Of a DNA stretch of 34,418 bases, positions 7,305-34,418 are shown in pieces. The DNA is from a virus: IMG/VR virus record IMGVR_UViG_3300030508_000050, positions 1-34,418 of that record; one strand, 5' to 3'. Under the pieces are notes generated by a model. The model was not told the DNA's origin, searched no databases, and saw only the letters and a list, made by a program, of their open reading frames with translations. How positions within the stretch are numbered: position 1 is the first letter of the stretch; each line of letters starts with the position of its first letter. The translations under genes were made by a program, and so were the position numbers.

Positions 7305-9192
<1,888 letters not shown>

Positions 9193-19391: not shown

Positions 19392-21293
19392 ATGGCAGCA
19401 CCCGATGGAAACGCGCCAAGAGATGCAAACTCACGTCCAACCCTTTTAGCGGTTGATGCAACGACTGGTTTGGTGTGTCCAGTTCAAGTTGATTCAAGCG
19501 GTCGGCTCCTTTTATCCGTGACTGGTTCTTTAACACTAGCCATTGGTGACACGATTACTAGTGCGACACAGGGTTCTGTTTTATTTGTTGGTCCAGCCGG
19601 TGTCCTTGCCCAAGACAATGCCAAGTTCTTTTGGGACGATACGAACTTTCGTTTAGGGATTGGCACAGCTTCGCCAACGGCTACTCTTTCCGTAGCGCAA
19701 ACAGCATCTTCATCAGGCGTGCCCATCACAGCCTTGTTTACGCCAGCATCCAATACAGCAATCACGCTCTCGACAAACGCGCCGCAATTTATACTTGCAA
19801 CCTCAACGCAAACCTACGCGACAGGTGCATTGGCTGAATACGATTACGCTCAATTCAATGCGCCCACTTTGGCGTTCGCGGGAGCTTCGACAATTACTTC
19901 TGCGGCTACGTTTACTATTTCAGGTGCTCCAATTGCTGGTACGAATGCTACAATTACGAATGGGTATTGTTTATGGTCTAAAGGCGGTGTAACTCGTTTA
20001 GATGGTCAGCTTCAAGTAAACGCCTCCGTGTCAACAGGCTACCTTAGTATGGGTTTATGTACGGCTTTTTTTCATCGAGCTAATGGTTCGGGTGAAGCAA
20101 TCATCACTAATGATGTAACGCAAGTCTTACAAATAAGTACGTCGAGTTCAGGTACATCCAATGAATCCTATTTTGCAGTTAATAGTGGTGTTGCAGGTAG
20201 TTATGGTTTAATTGTTGGTTTTACTGAAAATAATGGCACCTTCGGTCGTGCAGGGGTCTTTCGAGTTGTACCGAATAATGCGACACTTCAGTTTATTGTG
20301 AACAACACTACAATTGCTTTAGCGGTTGCAGCCACTGGCTCACAAGTATGGAACGGGTCTGCAGCTTCATCTGGGGCAGTTGCTTTTTCTTCATGGACGC
20401 CGCCAAATAATACGGGTATAACGACCACAGTGAACGCTCCAGAATTCTTGTTCGTTACGTCTACTCAAACGTGGGCGACAGGTACGGTTGCAGAGGCTGA
20501 TTACATGCAAATTAATGCCCCTACTTTTGCTGCTGCTGCTGCTTCTACCTTTACTGTGGCTTCGACCGTAACTATTTCTGGTGCTCCGATCGCGGGAACG
20601 AATGCGACCATCACACAGGGTTATGCTCTAAACATCGCTGGTGGTGCTGTTGGATTCACAGGCGGTGCTTCGACGGCTACGACGAACAATGCTCAAATTT
20701 GGAGCAATTCTGGTCAGCTCAACTTATGGGCCAAGAATAGCGGTGGAATGATTTTGAGTGCGGGTGGTGGGCTAACTCACCTTGCTCTTACACCCACAGG
20801 ATCAGTCACCATCACGCCTACCAATACAAGTTCGGCCCCAGCTTCGCTTTCCATCACTCCACCGAATTTCTCGTCGATCACAGCCACAAACAACGCTCCA
20901 CAGCTGAACATGGTCACGTCTACGATGACATGGGCCACAGGTACCGTTGCAGAAGCAGATTACGTTTTATTTAATGCCCCGACGTTTGCCGCCGCCGCCG
21001 CTTCAACTTTTACCGTTGCATCAACGGTAACTATCAGTGGCGCACCCATCGCAGGCACGAACGCGACGCTCACCAACGCCTACGCCATCAACGTGAAGGC
21101 TGGCTTGTCTCGCTTCACGGGAGGTATTGATCTTTCGGGCATTGGAAGTACGACAGCCAATATCACCTACACCGCGACCACCTCGACCCCAGCGACGACC
21201 TGGACGTCTGGAGCAACGACCTCTAACCCACAAGGATTTATCAAGGTGATCACGGGTGGAGCGACCGTCGGATATATCCCTGTTTACTCCTAA
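19392..21293 (+). CDS. Tail fibre-like protein with three repeated domains, 633 aa
   Basis: The first 42 residues form the module shared with the proteins at 19108 and 21544. Three copies of an 85-90 residue unit follow at about residues 113-198, 331-418 and 482-572. Each ends in TISGAPIAGTNAT followed by a short beta segment. The Thr/Ala/Gly composition and lack of charges fit a trimeric beta-helical fibre. I expect a receptor-binding or fibre shaft protein, anchored by its N-terminal module. DNA identity between copies 2 and 3 is high, so the region can recombine. Host receptor and enzyme activity are not evident. Confidence 0.65.
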   Translation: MAAPDGNAPRDANSRPTLLAVDATTGLVCPVQVDSSGRLLLSVTGSLTLAIGDTITSATQGSVLFVGPAGVLAQDNAKFFWDDTNFRLGIGTASPTATLSVAQTASSSGVPITALFTPASNTAITLSTNAPQFILATSTQTYATGALAEYDYAQFNAPTLAFAGASTITSAATFTISGAPIAGTNATITNGYCLWSKGGVTRLDGQLQVNASVSTGYLSMGLCTAFFHRANGSGEAIITNDVTQVLQISTSSSGTSNESYFAVNSGVAGSYGLIVGFTENNGTFGRAGVFRVVPNNATLQFIVNNTTIALAVAATGSQVWNGSAASSGAVAFSSWTPPNNTGITTTVNAPEFLFVTSTQTWATGTVAEADYMQINAPTFAAAAASTFTVASTVTISGAPIAGTNATITQGYALNIAGGAVGFTGGASTATTNNAQIWSNSGQLNLWAKNSGGMILSAGGGLTHLALTPTGSVTITPTNTSSAPASLSITPPNFSSITATNNAPQLNMVTSTMTWATGTVAEADYVLFNAPTFAAAAASTFTVASTVTISGAPIAGTNATLTNAYAINVKAGLSRFTGGIDLSGIGSTTANITYTATTSTPATTWTSGATTSNPQGFIKVITGGATVGYIPVYS

Positions 21294-21543: not shown

Positions 21544-23106
21544 ATGGCCTCTCCCGACGGCAACGCGCCACGCGATCAAAATTCAAGACCGACTTTGCTT
21601 GGCGTCGATGACGTTACGGGTTTGGTCGCACCAATTCAGGTTGATGCTAACGGTCGAATTCTGTTATCAGCTACAGGTTTATCTGGGATCACACTACAGA
21701 CAAACAGTGTTTCTAATAGCAGCCAAACAGTTCTAAACTTAACTGCCGGAACAAACATTACCCTCACTGCTGGGGCTAGTGGTTTGGTAACCATTGCCGC
21801 TTCTGGTAGTTCTGGTTCTGTTACAAGTGTATCGGTCGTTTCAACGAACGGATTTGCAGGAACAGTAGCCACTGCGACTACGACACCAGCCATCACTATT
21901 TCTACTTCCATTACTGGAATCTTGCAGGGTAATGGTACGGCCATTTCTGCTGCCTCGACTAATGGCACGGGAAATGTGGTGTTGACTAGCTCTCCAGCTT
22001 TAATCACGCCAGCTCTAGGTGCTGCAACTGCAACTTCGTTAAATGGATTAACAATCACAACCACCACAGGTACATTAACAGTAACCAACTTAAAGACGTT
22101 GACTGTTTCAGATTCCACAACCTTAGGAACGAACGCCATCACGTTCGCGGGGGGTGAGGTAGTGACTTTCTCTGCAACCAATGCTTTGACGTTTACGACG
22201 ACAGGCTCAACATCAATCACGCTTCCCACTTCTGGCACGCTGGTTAATTCAGCCGTAGCGACTCTCTCCTCTCTTACTTCCATTGGAACGATTGGAACAG
22301 GTGTATGGCAAGGTACGCCTGTTACCGTTCAATATGGTGGCACTGGATTGGCCACTACAACGGCCTATAGCGTGATTTGTGCTGGCACTACAGCTACGGG
22401 TATCTTTCAATCATTAGCTGCTCTTGGGGCCACTGGTACGGTTCTAACCTCGAATGGTGCGGGTGCATTACCGTCATTCCAAGCTGCTGCTGGTAGTTCT
22501 CAGTCAACATTGATTATTTCCACGGATTTTTCAGTTGCGGCACGGTTTGCTCCGACCGGTTCTGGTACGATTACCTATGGCTCTGGGGGATTGTCGCTTG
22601 ATACGACTGCAACGACGACTAGAAGTGCTTCTGTGACATGGGCTTTTAGTGGACAAGCCAGCGAAGAAATAGGCAATCCTACTTTCTCTTGTTCCGTTAA
22701 CAATCAAGGGTTAGGGACGGATATGCAAGCATTCTTTGGTTTGGGATCACCAACGGTTGCTGGAACAGGTATTACTTATACGGTTGCTCATATAGGCTTC
22801 AAGATCACTCGTTCAGCTAGTGGTACATGTAGTGTTTTCGCTACGCAGGCTGATGGAACCACTGAAAACGCTTCGGCCGCTTTAGTTACTATGGCTGCTT
22901 TCGATTCATTTGATTTTATTGTTCACGTAATTAGTGGAACGTCAGTGAACTATTATTGGAGGCAAAATGGCGGTGCATTATCTGCTGCCACTAATTTGAC
23001 CTCGAATATGCCAACTGGTTTAAGTGGTTCAACTTTTGGAGTGTCAAACGTATCACATGCTTCTGATAGTGCTTTTACCGTTTTCGGAGCCACCTATACA
23101 CGTTAA
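21544..23106 (+). CDS. Second tail fibre-like protein, 520 aa
   Basis: Residues 1-42 are closely similar to the N-terminus of the 633-residue fibre (MASPDGNAPRDQNSRPTLL against MAAPDGNAPRDANSRPTLL), whereas the remaining sequence differs. The shaft is Thr-, Ser- and Gly-rich with NTLTVTN-type beta repeats, and the C-terminal 190 residues form a compact domain (from about residue 330, after an Ala/Gly/Ser linker) with features of a lectin-like or carbohydrate-binding beta sandwich. I interpret it as an alternative receptor-binding protein that plugs onto the same virion site as the first. No catalytic motif is visible. Confidence 0.6.
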   Translation: MASPDGNAPRDQNSRPTLLGVDDVTGLVAPIQVDANGRILLSATGLSGITLQTNSVSNSSQTVLNLTAGTNITLTAGASGLVTIAASGSSGSVTSVSVVSTNGFAGTVATATTTPAITISTSITGILQGNGTAISAASTNGTGNVVLTSSPALITPALGAATATSLNGLTITTTTGTLTVTNLKTLTVSDSTTLGTNAITFAGGEVVTFSATNALTFTTTGSTSITLPTSGTLVNSAVATLSSLTSIGTIGTGVWQGTPVTVQYGGTGLATTTAYSVICAGTTATGIFQSLAALGATGTVLTSNGAGALPSFQAAAGSSQSTLIISTDFSVAARFAPTGSGTITYGSGGLSLDTTATTTRSASVTWAFSGQASEEIGNPTFSCSVNNQGLGTDMQAFFGLGSPTVAGTGITYTVAHIGFKITRSASGTCSVFATQADGTTENASAALVTMAAFDSFDFIVHVISGTSVNYYWRQNGGALSAATNLTSNMPTGLSGSTFGVSNVSHASDSAFTVFGATYTR

Positions 23107-28314: not shown

Positions 28315-30684
28315 ATGGCTAATCCCATCCAAGTAGCCGCAATGACATCGGCTATTAAAAGCCATGAAAGTGGCGGAAATTATAATGCACAAGGTTCCTT
28401 GGGTGAGGTTGGGGCTTATCAAATTTTGCCATCAAATTATTCCGGTTGGGCTGCTGCGGCTGGACAATCACCAACTGATACTTCACCGGCTGCACAGGAT
28501 GCAACGGCATCTAAACAAATTGGTTCGTACTTTGATAAATACAATAACGACCCCACTGCTGTAGCTTTGGCATGGAATGGTGGACCAGGCGCGGCAGATC
28601 AATATGCAAAAACTGGTCAGGTACCGAATATATCAGGCACTAAAACTGGCGATAACGGACAGCCTGTAAATTACAGCACTTCAAATTATGTGGATGCCGT
28701 TGTTCCACAATACAAACAGAATCTTTCACAAAGTGTCTTTAGTAACTTCGGCCAAAAGGTTGATGCGATGCGCTCACAACTCGGCATGAGCGATACAGCT
28801 ATCTTGGCAAAAGTTGCTTCTATTGATCCATCTCTTAACTCTGCCATTACCAAGGCTCAAGCATCGTATGGCCAACCTGGAAGCCCGTATCAAAATGATA
28901 GTGATTTTGTAAATGCTTTGGCTCAAGGTAAGGCTACAGTTCCAAGTGTCCCTACTTCTTCACAAGGTTCCGATAGTAATCTTGGGACCGAAGCCTTAGG
29001 TGCTATAAGCAATTTTGCCAAAGGTATTGTCATGCCTGTTGCTCGCACTGCCGAAAGTGCCTTCGCTCCTATCGAGGCTACGGCTCAACTTGCAGCAGGT
29101 AATCAAGCAGGGGCTGCCACAACGATGCAGGGCATCACTTTACCTTGGTTGGGTAGAGTAACACCTGTAGGTACCAATGACACAACTACAGGTCAATTTG
29201 CGAAGGATGTGATAGGCACTGGACTACAAGTAGGCTCACTTTTGGGAGGTGGAGAAGGAGCTGCCGCTGAAGGAGCCGAGCGCGAAGCTGTTCCGTTGCT
29301 CTCTCGCATAGCCGAAGGAGCTGGTTCTGGTGCAAAAGTTGCCGGACTTGCCGGCGCGGCACAAGGGGCAGGCGGTGCTTTGCAAGACCCAAATGCCTCT
29401 GTAGGTTCTGTTTTAGCGGGAACAGCAGAAGGTGGAGCAACTGGTTTTGTAACTGGTGGTGTACTTGGTGGTGCTTTGGGTGGTCTAGTAAAAAATGCAG
29501 GTGAAGGTGTTACCGATGCTGCCACCCAAAAGAATCTTTCAGCATTGGAAAAATTGGAATTATCCAAAGGTGGTCAAGGACTTTCAGATATCGCAGATAC
29601 GGCTACCAAACAAGGCTTCGATATTAGGGGTGATATCGCTAAATCAAATCTGTTGAGTGGCACGATTGACAAAACAGGCACGATTGATACCACGGGAGCT
29701 TCTGCCGAAATGGGAAAGGTTTTGAATGCTCCAGGTGAAAATGGAGTTCCCTCATTAGTAGAAAGAGCTTCGGCCCTTATTAAAGCCGAGGGTAACACGG
29801 TCCCAATCTCGGAAGTACAGCGAGCTATGGAAGAAAACATGCTCAATAATTCGAGCTTGAAAGGTGAAGCATTGATAAATGCCAAAGCAAAGATCGACCG
29901 AGAGATTGCCGGTCTTAGTTTATTTTCAGATCAAAATGGAGAGGTACCTGTTTCAGAACTTCAAGACGCTAAGACAAATAAATACGCAACTATTGATTAT
30001 CAGAATACTGGCAATAAATTAGCTGATAAGAATATCGCCAACACCTATAAAACACTGGTTGAAGATAATACCAATAGTGTTGATATAAAAGCTCACAATA
30101 AAGCCTTATCGCATGTTTACGCGATTAAAGATTATTTGGATGAGCTTAATGGAAGAAAGGTTGAAGGAGGAAAATTAGGGTCTTACTTTGCAAAAGGTCT
30201 AGGCTCTGTTTTAGGTATTCACTTCGGCCCACTTGGTCAGATCATCTCGAGCGAAGGAATGGGGGCCATTCAGAAAGCCGCCATGATGAATACGTTTGCT
30301 AATGGAGTTGGAGATGAGATCGCATTACATCCAGGCGCAATTTCTGCCCAAGAGTTTACAGACAAGTTGGCAGACCTAACTAAAGCTGCTCAAGACAAAG
30401 CTACTGCACAAGCCACTTCCGAAGCTGCCGCCAGGGCTGCGAGTGAACAAGCTGCCGCATTGAATGAATCGCAAGCTGCAGAACTTCGATCACGGGTCGC
30501 TGCTAATGAAGCACTTCGTCAACAACGATTAGCCGGAATTCAAGAGCGTCTTTCTAAAGCCACTACAACACAAAATAGACAAGCCGCTTTACGCTCTCGT
30601 CTATTTGGAGATCAAAGCATGGTTAGCGAAAACGATATACCTAATATCGTGAAAGAGGCAGCCAGTAAAAGAAAGAGGAGTTAA
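28315..30684 (+). CDS. Virion protein with lytic transglycosylase domain, 789 aa
   Basis: Residues 10-110 form a lysozyme-like transglycosylase domain. Glu18 in KSHESGGNYNA fits the catalytic glutamate. GAYQILPSNY and ALAWNGGPG are the other family signatures. It should cleave peptidoglycan locally during DNA entry. The rest has Gly/Ala-rich helices near 255-395, possibly membrane-inserting, and a coiled-coil C-terminus rich in Ala, Gln and Arg (about 670-770). This two-part layout is common for large ejection proteins. The last bases overlap the stop of the minus-strand membrane gene. Confidence 0.75.
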   Translation: MANPIQVAAMTSAIKSHESGGNYNAQGSLGEVGAYQILPSNYSGWAAAAGQSPTDTSPAAQDATASKQIGSYFDKYNNDPTAVALAWNGGPGAADQYAKTGQVPNISGTKTGDNGQPVNYSTSNYVDAVVPQYKQNLSQSVFSNFGQKVDAMRSQLGMSDTAILAKVASIDPSLNSAITKAQASYGQPGSPYQNDSDFVNALAQGKATVPSVPTSSQGSDSNLGTEALGAISNFAKGIVMPVARTAESAFAPIEATAQLAAGNQAGAATTMQGITLPWLGRVTPVGTNDTTTGQFAKDVIGTGLQVGSLLGGGEGAAAEGAEREAVPLLSRIAEGAGSGAKVAGLAGAAQGAGGALQDPNASVGSVLAGTAEGGATGFVTGGVLGGALGGLVKNAGEGVTDAATQKNLSALEKLELSKGGQGLSDIADTATKQGFDIRGDIAKSNLLSGTIDKTGTIDTTGASAEMGKVLNAPGENGVPSLVERASALIKAEGNTVPISEVQRAMEENMLNNSSLKGEALINAKAKIDREIAGLSLFSDQNGEVPVSELQDAKTNKYATIDYQNTGNKLADKNIANTYKTLVEDNTNSVDIKAHNKALSHVYAIKDYLDELNGRKVEGGKLGSYFAKGLGSVLGIHFGPLGQIISSEGMGAIQKAAMMNTFANGVGDEIALHPGAISAQEFTDKLADLTKAAQDKATAQATSEAAARAASEQAAALNESQAAELRSRVAANEALRQQRLAGIQERLSKATTTQNRQAALRSRLFGDQSMVSENDIPNIVKEAASKRKRS

Positions 30685-30863
30685 TGCTTAGATGCCCACG
30701 AAGCTCCGATAATGAACACTAAAATAAATATGGCAAACAGAAAGGCACCTAATAGAGCTAGCCCTTTGAAAGCAAACGAAACAGGACTTTGTTTGTCTTC
30801 ATACCTGTGTCCAATGACCCAAAGCATGCACCAGATTCCGATAATTGAAAGTAGATAAATCAT
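30681..30863 (-). CDS. Two-helix membrane protein on opposite strand, 60 aa
   Basis: A 60-residue frame on the minus strand inside the plus-strand late region. I use ATG 30863-30861 (TATG context). It has a hydrophobic helix at residues 2-18, a charged loop (HRYEDKQSPVS) and a second helix at about 33-54, with Lys-His at the end. A promoter-like sequence lies just upstream, so it may be transcribed alone. It could be a superinfection-exclusion or anti-holin-like protein next to the lysis genes. No family is recognised. Confidence 0.55.
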   Translation of the reverse strand: MIYLLSIIGIWCMLWVIGHRYEDKQSPVSFAFKGLALLGAFLFAIFILVFIIGASWASKH

Positions 30864-30871
30864 ATACGGAT

Positions 30872-30901
30872 ATCCTAACCACAATTAGTGATTTAAGTCA
30901 A
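30872..30901 (-). promoter_or_regulatory. Promoter-like sequence for the minus-strand membrane gene
   Basis: On the minus strand: TTGACT (30901-30896), an 18-base spacer, TAGGAT (30877-30872). The predicted start would be within a few bases of ATG 30863, so the mRNA would be almost leaderless. It would oppose late transcription. Confidence 0.45.
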
Positions 30902-30903
30902 GT

Positions 30904-31113
30904 ATGCAAGATCCTAAAAACATTCTAAACGGCTCAACCCTAGTTCCTTTAGGTGTTATTAGTGGTCTACTTGCGGCGGCATGGTCCTACGGAGCGATGT
31001 GGCAACAGGTACAAGGTCTACAGATAAGCATGAATCAGATCCAACGACAGGTAGCTACGATCAGTGACCAACTAGATGGATTGAACTCTAAATACTCATT
31101 AGCCAATAAATAG
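30904..31113 (+). CDS. Single-TM protein, possible lysis accessory, 69 aa
   Basis: A 69-residue protein with one hydrophobic segment (about residues 13-29: VPLGVISGLLAAAWSYG) and a Gln-rich helical C-terminus likely to form a coiled coil (MNQIQRQVATISDQLDGL). It lies one base before the papain-like protease gene (TAGTATG). One-helix proteins beside a lytic enzyme can be holins or spanin-like components. The topology and coupling support a lysis role but do not prove it. Confidence 0.5.
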   Translation: MQDPKNILNGSTLVPLGVISGLLAAAWSYGAMWQQVQGLQISMNQIQRQVATISDQLDGLNSKYSLANK

Positions 31114-31114
31114 T

Positions 31115-32122
31115 ATGCCTTCTCAACTCGGAGTTAATACAGGTTTAGCGCCATTACCATTCGACAGTCGAGATGTATTCGCTGATGAAATTGGCCTAGC
31201 TGGTTCGGCAGTTATCCCCAAATCTTTTCTTACTGAGGGTATTCCTTTTGAACCACAAGGTGATTATCCATTCTGTGTTTCCTTTGCTACTTGTAAACTT
31301 GTAAATCTAGCGATCAAAGCTGTCAACGGGCAGACTTACGACTTTTCCAAACCTTTTCAGTTCTTCCGTTCTGGTGGTAATGCCGAAGGTTCCGACTTCC
31401 GATCAAACTTGGCCACAGCTATTAGTCCCGGTTGCATTGATAATAGCCAGCTCCCAATGCCAGCCGATGTATACGGTCCCAGTCAGTTCAATGAACTGCA
31501 GCAGAAGGCCGCTACCTTGGCCTACAGTGCACCTGAATGCGTAATAGGCTACATGCGTATAAATCCAACTACGGAAGCTATTCAGCAGGCCATTATGAGC
31601 TTTGGAGGGGTATTGATAAACGTGTGTGCAGAGTCTAATTGGTTTGTCGATGGTTGTGAATTCCCTGTTGGTGGAGTCTACAATCATGGTGTGATCGCAG
31701 TAGGTTGGAGGGAAGATGGATGCCGGTGCGTACATGATAGCATAGAGGAATCTGCAGCCTTCACTGGTTATCACTACATCGCTGCTGATTACCCACTTAC
31801 GAGTATCTATGCGATTGCTCCTTTGCCGGCTAACTGGAGGGATTTACGAGATACAGTGCGTGCTGCTCCATTTGCGAACGCCTTGAGCCACTTTAGTAAA
31901 GCGCGTAATCTAGCAATAGAACAACAGACGGCCAGTGATCTATTAGCAGCGTTCACAGCCTTAAAAAATCAAAGCGTGATGGATGCAGCCGGTCGCTTTT
32001 GGACCGTCTTCATAAATTGCGTGAGCTATGGAAACTATACCGTTACGGATTGCGTAAATTACACCTACGCTTTCCGTCGTGGTGAAACAGCTCCGTTCGA
32101 TCTAAATCAACCTAAACCTTAA
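31115..32122 (+). CDS. Papain-like cysteine peptidase, 335 aa
   Basis: The protein has a C1 (papain) peptidase pattern. Gln48 and Cys54 lie six residues apart in PQGDYPFCVSFATCK, exactly the spacing of Gln19 and Cys25 in papain. His191 sits in VYNHGVIAVGW, like the catalytic His in NHAVxxVGY. The third residue, usually Asn in NSW, seems to be Asp208 in HDSIEES. The C-terminal 100 residues (after about 235) are helical and may bind a partner. No signal peptide is seen. It lies between two candidate lysis membrane proteins, so a protein-degrading endolysin-type function is plausible. Alternatives are virion maturation or host takeover. Confidence 0.7.
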   Translation: MPSQLGVNTGLAPLPFDSRDVFADEIGLAGSAVIPKSFLTEGIPFEPQGDYPFCVSFATCKLVNLAIKAVNGQTYDFSKPFQFFRSGGNAEGSDFRSNLATAISPGCIDNSQLPMPADVYGPSQFNELQQKAATLAYSAPECVIGYMRINPTTEAIQQAIMSFGGVLINVCAESNWFVDGCEFPVGGVYNHGVIAVGWREDGCRCVHDSIEESAAFTGYHYIAADYPLTSIYAIAPLPANWRDLRDTVRAAPFANALSHFSKARNLAIEQQTASDLLAAFTALKNQSVMDAAGRFWTVFINCVSYGNYTVTDCVNYTYAFRRGETAPFDLNQPKP

Positions 32123-32265: not shown

Positions 32266-32475
32266 ATGACATCCTCCATGTTCAAGTCGATTCTTAAACA
32301 CGCAGCAATCGTAGCTCTCGCTGGTATACTCACTTACGCTCTTCAAGTAGTTGGTAGTTTCGACTTAGGTGAATGGGCACCTATAGTCATCTTGATTTTG
32401 AGTACGGCTATCCATGCTTTAGACCAGTTACTCAATCCACCCGCAGCTGTAGCTCCCGCAGCTGTCACCCAATAA
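32266..32475 (+). CDS. Holin-like small membrane protein, 69 aa
   Basis: The start is ATG 32266, one base after the previous stop. The 69 residues contain two hydrophobic helices, about 9-27 (HAAIVALAGILTYALQVVG) and 34-51 (WAPIVILILSTAIHALDQ), joined by a short acidic turn, and an Ala/Pro-rich tail. Two helices, size and the place after a peptidase and before the late terminator match class II/III type phage holins, which permeabilise the host membrane to release lytic enzymes. It is the last rightward gene. Confidence 0.65.
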   Translation: MTSSMFKSILKHAAIVALAGILTYALQVVGSFDLGEWAPIVILILSTAIHALDQLLNPPAAVAPAAVTQ

Positions 32476-32523: not shown

Positions 32524-32613
32524 ATGAAAATTACGTCCTTCAAGGCGGGGGTCTACAAGCAACAAGATGAGTACAAGAGGATACAGAAACAGGCTCCGTT
32601 CGGAGCCTGTTTT
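32524..32613 (+). ncRNA. Candidate short transcript between late genes and terminator
   Basis: Between the extended -10 at 32512 and the terminator at 32587 a transcript of about 90 bases is predicted. It has an ATG at its first base, opening a frame (MKITSFKAGVYKQQDEYKR) that reads into the terminator and on against the NinG gene. If transcription stops at the terminator, only a stop-less peptide frame is made, so a small RNA is the simpler reading. A remnant of a protein N-terminus is the alternative. Confidence 0.35.
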
Positions 32614-34054: not shown

Positions 34055-34321
34055 CTAGCCGTTGCCGTTGCCGTTGCCGTTTCCGTTTCCGTAGCCGTTG
34101 CCGTTGCCGTCGCCGTTGCCGTTTCCGTAGCCGTTGCCGTTTCCGTAGCCGTAGCCGTTGCCGTCGCCGTAGCCGTTTCCGTAGCCGTCGCCGTAGCCGT
34201 CGCCGTCGCCGTTTCCGTAGCCGTTGCCGTTTCCGTAGCCGTTGCCGTTTCCGTAGCCGTAGCCGTTGCCGTTTCCGTAGCCGTCGCCGTAGCCGTTGCC
34301 TGACGCGATTGTAGTGGTCAT
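34055..34321 (-). CDS. Gly-Asn/Tyr/Asp dipeptide-repeat protein, 88 aa
   Basis: I start at ATG 34321-34319, one base after the upstream stop (TAATATG). After MTTTIASG the protein consists of about 40 Gly-Asn, Gly-Tyr or Gly-Asp pairs to its end. The codon before each residue is GGC or GGA, and the variable residue is always AAC, TAC or GAC. It has no charged residue except Asp and no fold is expected. Such low-complexity sequences can form condensates or fibres, or be adhesive. An early-operon location makes a virion role less likely. Function unknown. Confidence 0.55.
   Translation of the reverse strand: MTTTIASGNGYGDGYGNGNGYGYGNGNGYGNGNGYGNGDGDGYGDGYGNGYGDGNGYGYGNGNGYGNGNGDGNGNGYGNGNGNGNGNG
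34058..34297. repeat. Hexanucleotide satellite, 40 units
   Basis: Forty tandem units of consensus KCCGTH (gccgtt, gccgta, gccgtc, tccgta, tccgtt) with a higher-order 18-base unit (gccgtt gccgtt tccgta) repeated several times. Units keep reading frame exactly. The array is a coding microsatellite and could vary in length between phages. Confidence 0.9.
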
Positions 34322-34322
34322 A

Positions 34323-34418
34323 TTACTCACTCCAGTTCGCCACCTTAGCGATGGACTTTTGAGCTTCTTCGGTACATGGGATTACTTCAATTACTTCTGA
34401 TAATTGCACCTCGTTAAC
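34323..34418 (-). CDS. C-terminal part of a DUF6948-type protein (runs off right edge)
   Basis: The minus strand from the right edge reads 31 codons (VNEVQLSEVIEVIPCTEEAQ and on to NWSE) to TAA 34325-34323, one base before the repeat-protein ATG. The pattern VxLxEVIEVIPCTxxAQxSI is what I expect at the C-terminus of the family seen at 1-133. I infer that it is the other end of that gene on a circular genome. The missing part would be about 45 codons. Confidence 0.6.
   Translation of the reverse strand, partial: VNEVQLSEVIEVIPCTEEAQKSIAKVANWSE

What the first reader, a model, noticed from the sequence alone, without database searches (positions are those of the whole stretch)
31115..32122. 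Papain-like cysteine peptidase in the lysis region instead of a standard endolysin
Gln48/Cys54/His191 spacing matches the papain family, while no separate muramidase, amidase or endopeptidase of known endolysin type is found in the lysis area (a transglycosylase is fused to a virion protein). The gene lies between a one-helix membrane protein and a holin-like gene. The phage may lyse by degrading a protein layer, for example an S-layer or cell-wall protein, or the enzyme may mature virion proteins. The third catalytic residue appears to be Asp in place of Asn.
Basis: partly seen in the sequence, partly recalled or inferred. Interest (0 to 1): 0.65.

Follow-up and report, generated by a model that had tools for sequence, protein, structure and literature searches.

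The report
Papain-like protease in phage lysis cassette
An uncultivated phage, and at least eight otherwise unrelated ones, carries an intact papain-type protein-cutting enzyme set among small membrane-protein genes where the cell-bursting enzyme normally sits, with no standard wall-digesting lysis enzyme found, so these phages may burst their hosts with a cysteine protease.

Summary
Window 31115-32122 encodes a 335-aa protein with Gln48, Cys54, His191 and Asp208 where papain has Gln19, Cys25, His159 and Asn175. Alone it matches no family. With eight homologs recovered from metagenomic viral contigs (23-36% identity) the call is firm: the four catalytic positions are invariant in 9/9, the profile matches Cwp84 (7e-11) and cathepsin K (9e-10), and AlphaFold (pLDDT 85) plus Foldseek give a papain fold. 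Asp instead of Asn is a family trait, not decay. A ~95-aa helical C-terminal domain, better conserved than the peptidase, has no detectable relative.

Of 135 genes of >=200 aa in nine contigs, only four have small membrane-protein genes on both sides, and all four are this peptidase. It recurs in phages whose terminase, portal and capsid do not match the window's. Pfam finds no canonical endolysin in the window; relatives were checked less exhaustively.

I read it as the cassette's lytic enzyme (about 0.6), cutting peptide bonds in the envelope. The window phage's virion transglycosylase implies a peptidoglycan-bearing host, so the 'S-layer instead' idea is untested and cannot be the whole story. 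Annotated actinophage C1 proteases in lysis cassettes are the nearest precedent.

The parts
31115..32122 (+). 335-aa papain-fold cysteine peptidase: catalytic Q48, C54, H191, D208 in residues ~16-235, conserved helical C-terminal domain ~236-335
   Evidence: ORF; nine-member alignment; PDB profile search; AlphaFold and Foldseek
30904..31113 (+). 69-aa protein with one N-terminal hydrophobic helix followed by a coiled-coil-like stretch; possible spanin- or XhlA-like partner
   Evidence: hydropathy; 35% identical to the protein in the same place in L032; one base before the peptidase start codon
32124..32264 (+). 46-aa basic ORF of unknown role between peptidase and holin-like gene
   Evidence: sequence with single-base spacers on both sides
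32266..32475 (+). 69-aa holin-like protein with two hydrophobic stretches
   Evidence: hydropathy; related to the protein downstream of the L036 peptidase, pairwise E 8e-9
32586..32613 (+). terminator-like hairpin after the cassette
   Evidence: 12 pairs, 6 G-C, T-containing tail; consensus match only
28315..30684 (+). 789-aa presumed virion/ejection protein with N-terminal SLT transglycosylase domain (context; indicates a peptidoglycan-bearing host)
   Evidence: PF01464 E 5.4e-7, confirmed

Best explanation
The gene encodes an active papain-fold cysteine endopeptidase that serves as the lytic enzyme, or one of the lytic enzymes, of a late lysis cassette. Inferred sequence of events: the enzyme accumulates in the cytoplasm, the adjacent holin-like membrane protein lets it reach the envelope, its conserved C-terminal helical domain docks it, and Cys54/His191/Asp208 (with Gln48 as oxyanion hole) cuts peptide bonds of the envelope. 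The substrate may be peptidoglycan stem peptides or cross-bridges, or envelope proteins. The upstream helix-plus-coil protein would act as a partner (spanin- or XhlA-like). Shown here: fold, catalytic residues, family-wide conservation, gene neighbourhood, no recognised endolysin. Inferred: catalytic activity, export, role in lysis, substrate.
For: Q/C/H/D invariant in 9/9 divergent members; papain fold by profile and by structure. Of 135 genes of >=200 aa in nine contigs, only four have small hydrophobic-helix proteins on both sides, all four being this peptidase; 8/9 peptidases have at least one. Single-base gene spacing in the window. Shared by phages whose terminase, portal and capsid do not match the window's. 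No other Pfam wall enzyme in the window except virion SLT; none in G002/G007; targeted searches negative in 11 records. C1-type proteases sit inside annotated lysis cassettes of Mufasa8, ObLaDi and Lilbeanie; lysins with papain-superfamily peptidase domains are known (PMC3314691).
Against: No activity, host or virion data. The gene also lies beside tail genes, and in L052 no small membrane-protein gene was found next to it. The actinophages with a C1 protease in the cassette also carry a normal lysin, and others carry it elsewhere. Many genes are hypothetical, so a divergent lysin could be missed; 11 weak Pfam families of G005/G012 were not displayed and the GH108 search had no positive control.
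Confidence: 0.6

Rival explanations
1. A virion-associated protease on the tail or tail fibres that cuts host surface proteins during entry.
For: The gene is next to tail-fibre-like and adaptor genes in several relatives; in L052 there are no small membrane-protein neighbours.
Against: The peptidase is conserved among phages whose fibres and tails do not match the window's, and it is tied to small membrane-protein genes in 8/9 contigs.
Confidence: 0.17
2. An accessory late protease, not the main lysin: for example release of progeny from a protein layer after lysis, superinfection exclusion or inactivation of host proteins, with an unrecognised endolysin elsewhere.
For: Gordonia phages ObLaDi and Lilbeanie have a C1 protease in addition to lysin A, holin and lysin B; many hypothetical genes remain in all genomes.
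Against: No conventional lysin detected in the window or in the scans of relatives.
Confidence: 0.17
3. A protease that matures virion proteins (prohead or internal virion proteins).
For: Late structural-region location; tailed phages do use maturation proteases (general knowledge).
Against: About 15 kb from portal, scaffold-like and capsid genes; no PHROG or Pfam match of that kind; not shared with any matching head gene.
Confidence: 0.04
4. A papain fold without catalytic activity, used as a structural or binding protein.
For: Asn175 is replaced by Asp and the NSWG motif is lost.
Against: Q, C, H and D are invariant in 9/9 divergent members; aspartate is an accepted third residue in the superfamily (PMC10318531).
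Confidence: 0.02

Closest known systems
Papain family C1 (PF00112): xylellain 3ois, Cwp84 4ci7/4d59, cathepsin K
   Same: Fold, Gln-Cys-His geometry by alignment, position of the third residue.
   Different: Asp for Asn175, no NSWG motif, extra C-terminal helical domain, single members mostly below Pfam detection (2/9).
C1-type cysteine proteases in lysis cassettes of Gordonia phages ObLaDi and Lilbeanie and Arthrobacter phage Mufasa8
   Same: Papain-type phage protease next to membrane/holin genes after the tail genes.
   Different: There a normal lysin A is present; the L006 protein used to find them (a remote C1 relative) keeps NSWG. The window protein itself has no tblastn match in them.
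Mycobacteriophage lysin A N5 domains and Gordonia phage BetterKatz gp29 (predicted cysteine-protease-like endolysin)
   Same: Papain-superfamily peptidase used as a lysin component (PMC3314691; PMC4982276).
   Different: N5 is C39-like and fused to other lysin domains; relation to this family not tested.
PeiW/PeiP pseudomurein endoisopeptidases (PMC4592898)
   Same: Phage-encoded Cys-His-Asp enzymes that lyse hosts by peptide (isopeptide) cleavage.
   Different: Transglutaminase-like enzymes of methanogen viruses with an N-terminal wall-binding domain; no sequence relation found or tested here.

Membership tests
Peptidase family C1 (papain) | Papain fold | tested here: met
   AlphaFold pLDDT 85, Foldseek prob 1.00 to xylellain, Cwp84, cathepsins
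Peptidase family C1 (papain) | Gln19, Cys25, His159 | tested here: met
   Q48, C54, H191 invariant in 9/9 and aligned to the cathepsin K residues
Peptidase family C1 (papain) | Asn175 in an NSWG motif | tested here: not met
   Asp in 9/9; tolerated in the wider superfamily (PMC10318531). Hence filed as a divergent C1-like enzyme, not as a typical C1A member
Peptidase family C1 (papain) | PF00112 match | tested here: inconclusive
   2/9 members match, best 1.9e-8; the window protein does not
Peptidase family C1 (papain) | Cysteine peptidase activity | not testable with these tools
   needs the expressed protein and Cys54Ala
Phage endolysin (functional class) | Located in a cassette with holin-like genes | tested here: met
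   small membrane-protein neighbours in 8/9 contigs, on both sides in 4
Phage endolysin (functional class) | Degrades peptidoglycan and causes lysis | not testable with these tools
   no activity data
CHAP peptidoglycan peptidase | PF05257 match | tested here: not met
   no CHAP match in any of the 11 records
Phage prohead protease | Gene near portal/capsid, known prohead-protease family | tested here: not met
   about 15 kb away from portal to capsid genes; no PHROG or Pfam match of that kind

The most novel reading that the evidence does not exclude
A mobile holin / helix-coil / papain-peptidase lysis module that replaces the peptidoglycan-specific endolysin altogether, so that these phages lyse through a dedicated protein-cutting endopeptidase carrying a new kind of envelope-docking domain.
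Probability: 0.3. Interest if true: 0.65.

Novelty: new variant of a known kind. Interest (0 to 1): 0.46.

Why it matters
Tailed phages with a wall-bearing host need a lytic enzyme, and nearly all known ones are glycosidases, amidases or peptidoglycan peptidases. A C1-type protease that is the only recognised candidate, conserved across phages sharing almost nothing else with the window phage, would add a protein-directed route to lysis and a new enzyme family missed by standard annotation. It also suggests a role for C1 proteases seen in actinophage lysis cassettes.

Tried and rejected
Single-sequence AlphaFold gave pLDDT 35, useless. Single-sequence searches of Pfam, PHROGs, NCBIfam, PDB, phage genomes and 84,980 species genomes found no relative. 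The species genomes again gave none with a four-sequence query, and plasmids none with another family member. Homologs came first from degenerate DNA patterns of the catalytic and C-terminal motifs, then from alignment-driven scans. L006 and L008 from the first pattern are other C1-type proteins without the C-terminal domain. About 20 pattern hits of the second scan were chance, in short or wrong frames. The search for a known relative of the C-terminal domain failed (PDB, phages). XhlA was suspected for the helix-plus-coil neighbours but Pfam gave no such match. Host identification was not possible. A first attempt to hand in this report was malformed and not accepted.

Full report
CHECK OF THE OBSERVATION. 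The ORF at 31115-32122 is real and 335 aa long. By itself it matches nothing in Pfam, PHROGs, NCBIfam, PDB sequences or 50,697 phage genomes. A degenerate DNA pattern for QGxYPxCVxFA in IMG/VR found one true homolog, L007. Alignment-driven and C-terminal-motif scans raised the family to nine distinct proteins: the window (and its near-identical record 3300029911_000063, L002/G001), L007, L015, L017, L031, L032, L035/L036 (same protein), L051 and L052. A last scan with a modified C-terminal pattern found no further member.

The other eight are 23-36% identical to the window protein. Gln48, Cys54, His191 and Asp208 are invariant. Sequence profiles match Cwp84 and cathepsin K at 7e-11 and 9e-10; the cathepsin alignment puts C54, H191 and D208 on the catalytic Cys, His and Asn. 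PF00112 is hit by two of nine members. The nine-sequence AlphaFold model has pLDDT 85 and pTM 0.84, and its top Foldseek hits are xylellain, Cwp84 and cathepsins with probability 1.00. Among viral models it matches phage Peptidase_C1 proteins. Distances in the active site could not be measured.

THIRD RESIDUE. The papain-like superfamily uses Asn, Gln, Asp or Glu at this place (PMC10318531).

C-TERMINAL DOMAIN. Residues ~236-335 form helices and are 26-47% identical to the window across the family, more than the protein as a whole, with invariant E269, N301, Y305, G306, Y308, D312, N315, R321 and R322. No relative was found in PDB or the phage collection. I infer a docking domain.

NEIGHBOURHOOD. 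In the window, four genes follow each other with single-base spacers: the 69-aa helix-plus-coil protein (30904), the peptidase, a 46-aa basic ORF (32124) and a 69-aa holin-like protein (32266); a terminator-like hairpin lies at 32586-32613. Similar small membrane proteins flank the gene in the relatives. The window's upstream protein is 35% identical to that of L032, and its downstream protein is related to that of L036 (pairwise E 8e-9). Over nine contigs, 135 genes of at least 200 aa were scored: four have small hydrophobic-helix proteins on both sides, and all four are this peptidase; eight of nine peptidases have at least one. This count uses a crude gene caller and hydropathy threshold, and the cassettes share ancestry, so it is indicative only.

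The peptidase is the one window gene found in all the relatives at E<=1e-3. Terminase, portal, capsid and tail proteins do not match; the other matches are an SLT-region N-terminus in G005 and G012, GroES in G005 and G012, GroEL in G005, and the holin-like gene in G007. The cassette thus appears to move as a module.

OTHER LYSINS. Among 51 window ORFs the only Pfam wall enzyme is the SLT domain of the 789-aa protein. A scan of 66 ORFs from G002 and G007 shows none. For 62 ORFs of G005 and G012 none is among the 25 families shown, but 11 weaker ones were not displayed. Targeted searches for Amidase_2, phage lysozyme, M15_4 and CHAP were negative in all 11 records with working controls; SLT over its cut-off was found only in the window and its near-identical record. 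The GH108 search had no positive control. The records are IMG/VR contigs without completeness values. L002 joins the window's two ends through 134 bases, so the window is nearly a whole genome.

MECHANISM. The cassette position, the missing endolysin and the intact active site make a lytic endopeptidase the best reading (0.6). The virion SLT domain implies that the window phage's host has peptidoglycan (inference), so cutting an S-layer alone would not release phage; peptide bonds of peptidoglycan, or envelope proteins in addition, are more plausible. Precedents: Gordonia phages ObLaDi and Lilbeanie and Arthrobacter phage Mufasa8 carry C1-type cysteine proteases beside lysin A and membrane/holin genes, whereas Thonko, Circinus and Sycamore carry them elsewhere. 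Mycobacteriophage lysins use papain-superfamily peptidase domains, some without a glycosidase or amidase domain (PMC3314691). BetterKatz gp29 is a predicted cysteine-protease-like endolysin (PMC4982276). PeiW/PeiP lyse methanogens with a Cys-His-Asp enzyme (PMC4592898). A tail-borne protease (0.17) or an accessory late protease (0.17) remain open.

NOVELTY. A previously unannotated, divergent papain-type family with a new C-terminal domain, recurring in a mobile lysis-like cassette. It is a new variant of a known kind; the stronger claim, a protein-cutting replacement of the endolysin, is untested.

Noticed in passing
7305-7604 and 7606-9192 (+): The phage encodes its own GroES and GroEL chaperonin (PF00166, PF00118); G005 has both and G012 at least GroES, so chaperonin genes recur in peptidase-bearing phages.
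   Followed up: partly
L005 8688-18191 (G001, contig 3300029911_000063): The 44-kb record carries the whole window sequence in circular order and then continues into a different head module (other terminase, portal, capsid) from the fibre gene onward: a mosaic relative or a chimeric assembly.
   Followed up: partly
30681-30884 (-): A 67-aa ORF with two hydrophobic stretches on the opposite strand, between the SLT protein and the cassette; possibly a real membrane protein or chance.
   Followed up: no
34055-34330 (-): A 91-aa ORF made almost wholly of Gly-Tyr-Gly-Asn/Asp repeats.
   Followed up: no
19392-21293 and 21544-23106 (+): Two fibre-like proteins share near-identical N-termini (MA(A/S)PDGNAPRD(A/Q)NSRPTLL), suggesting duplication of a virion-anchoring segment.
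   Followed up: no
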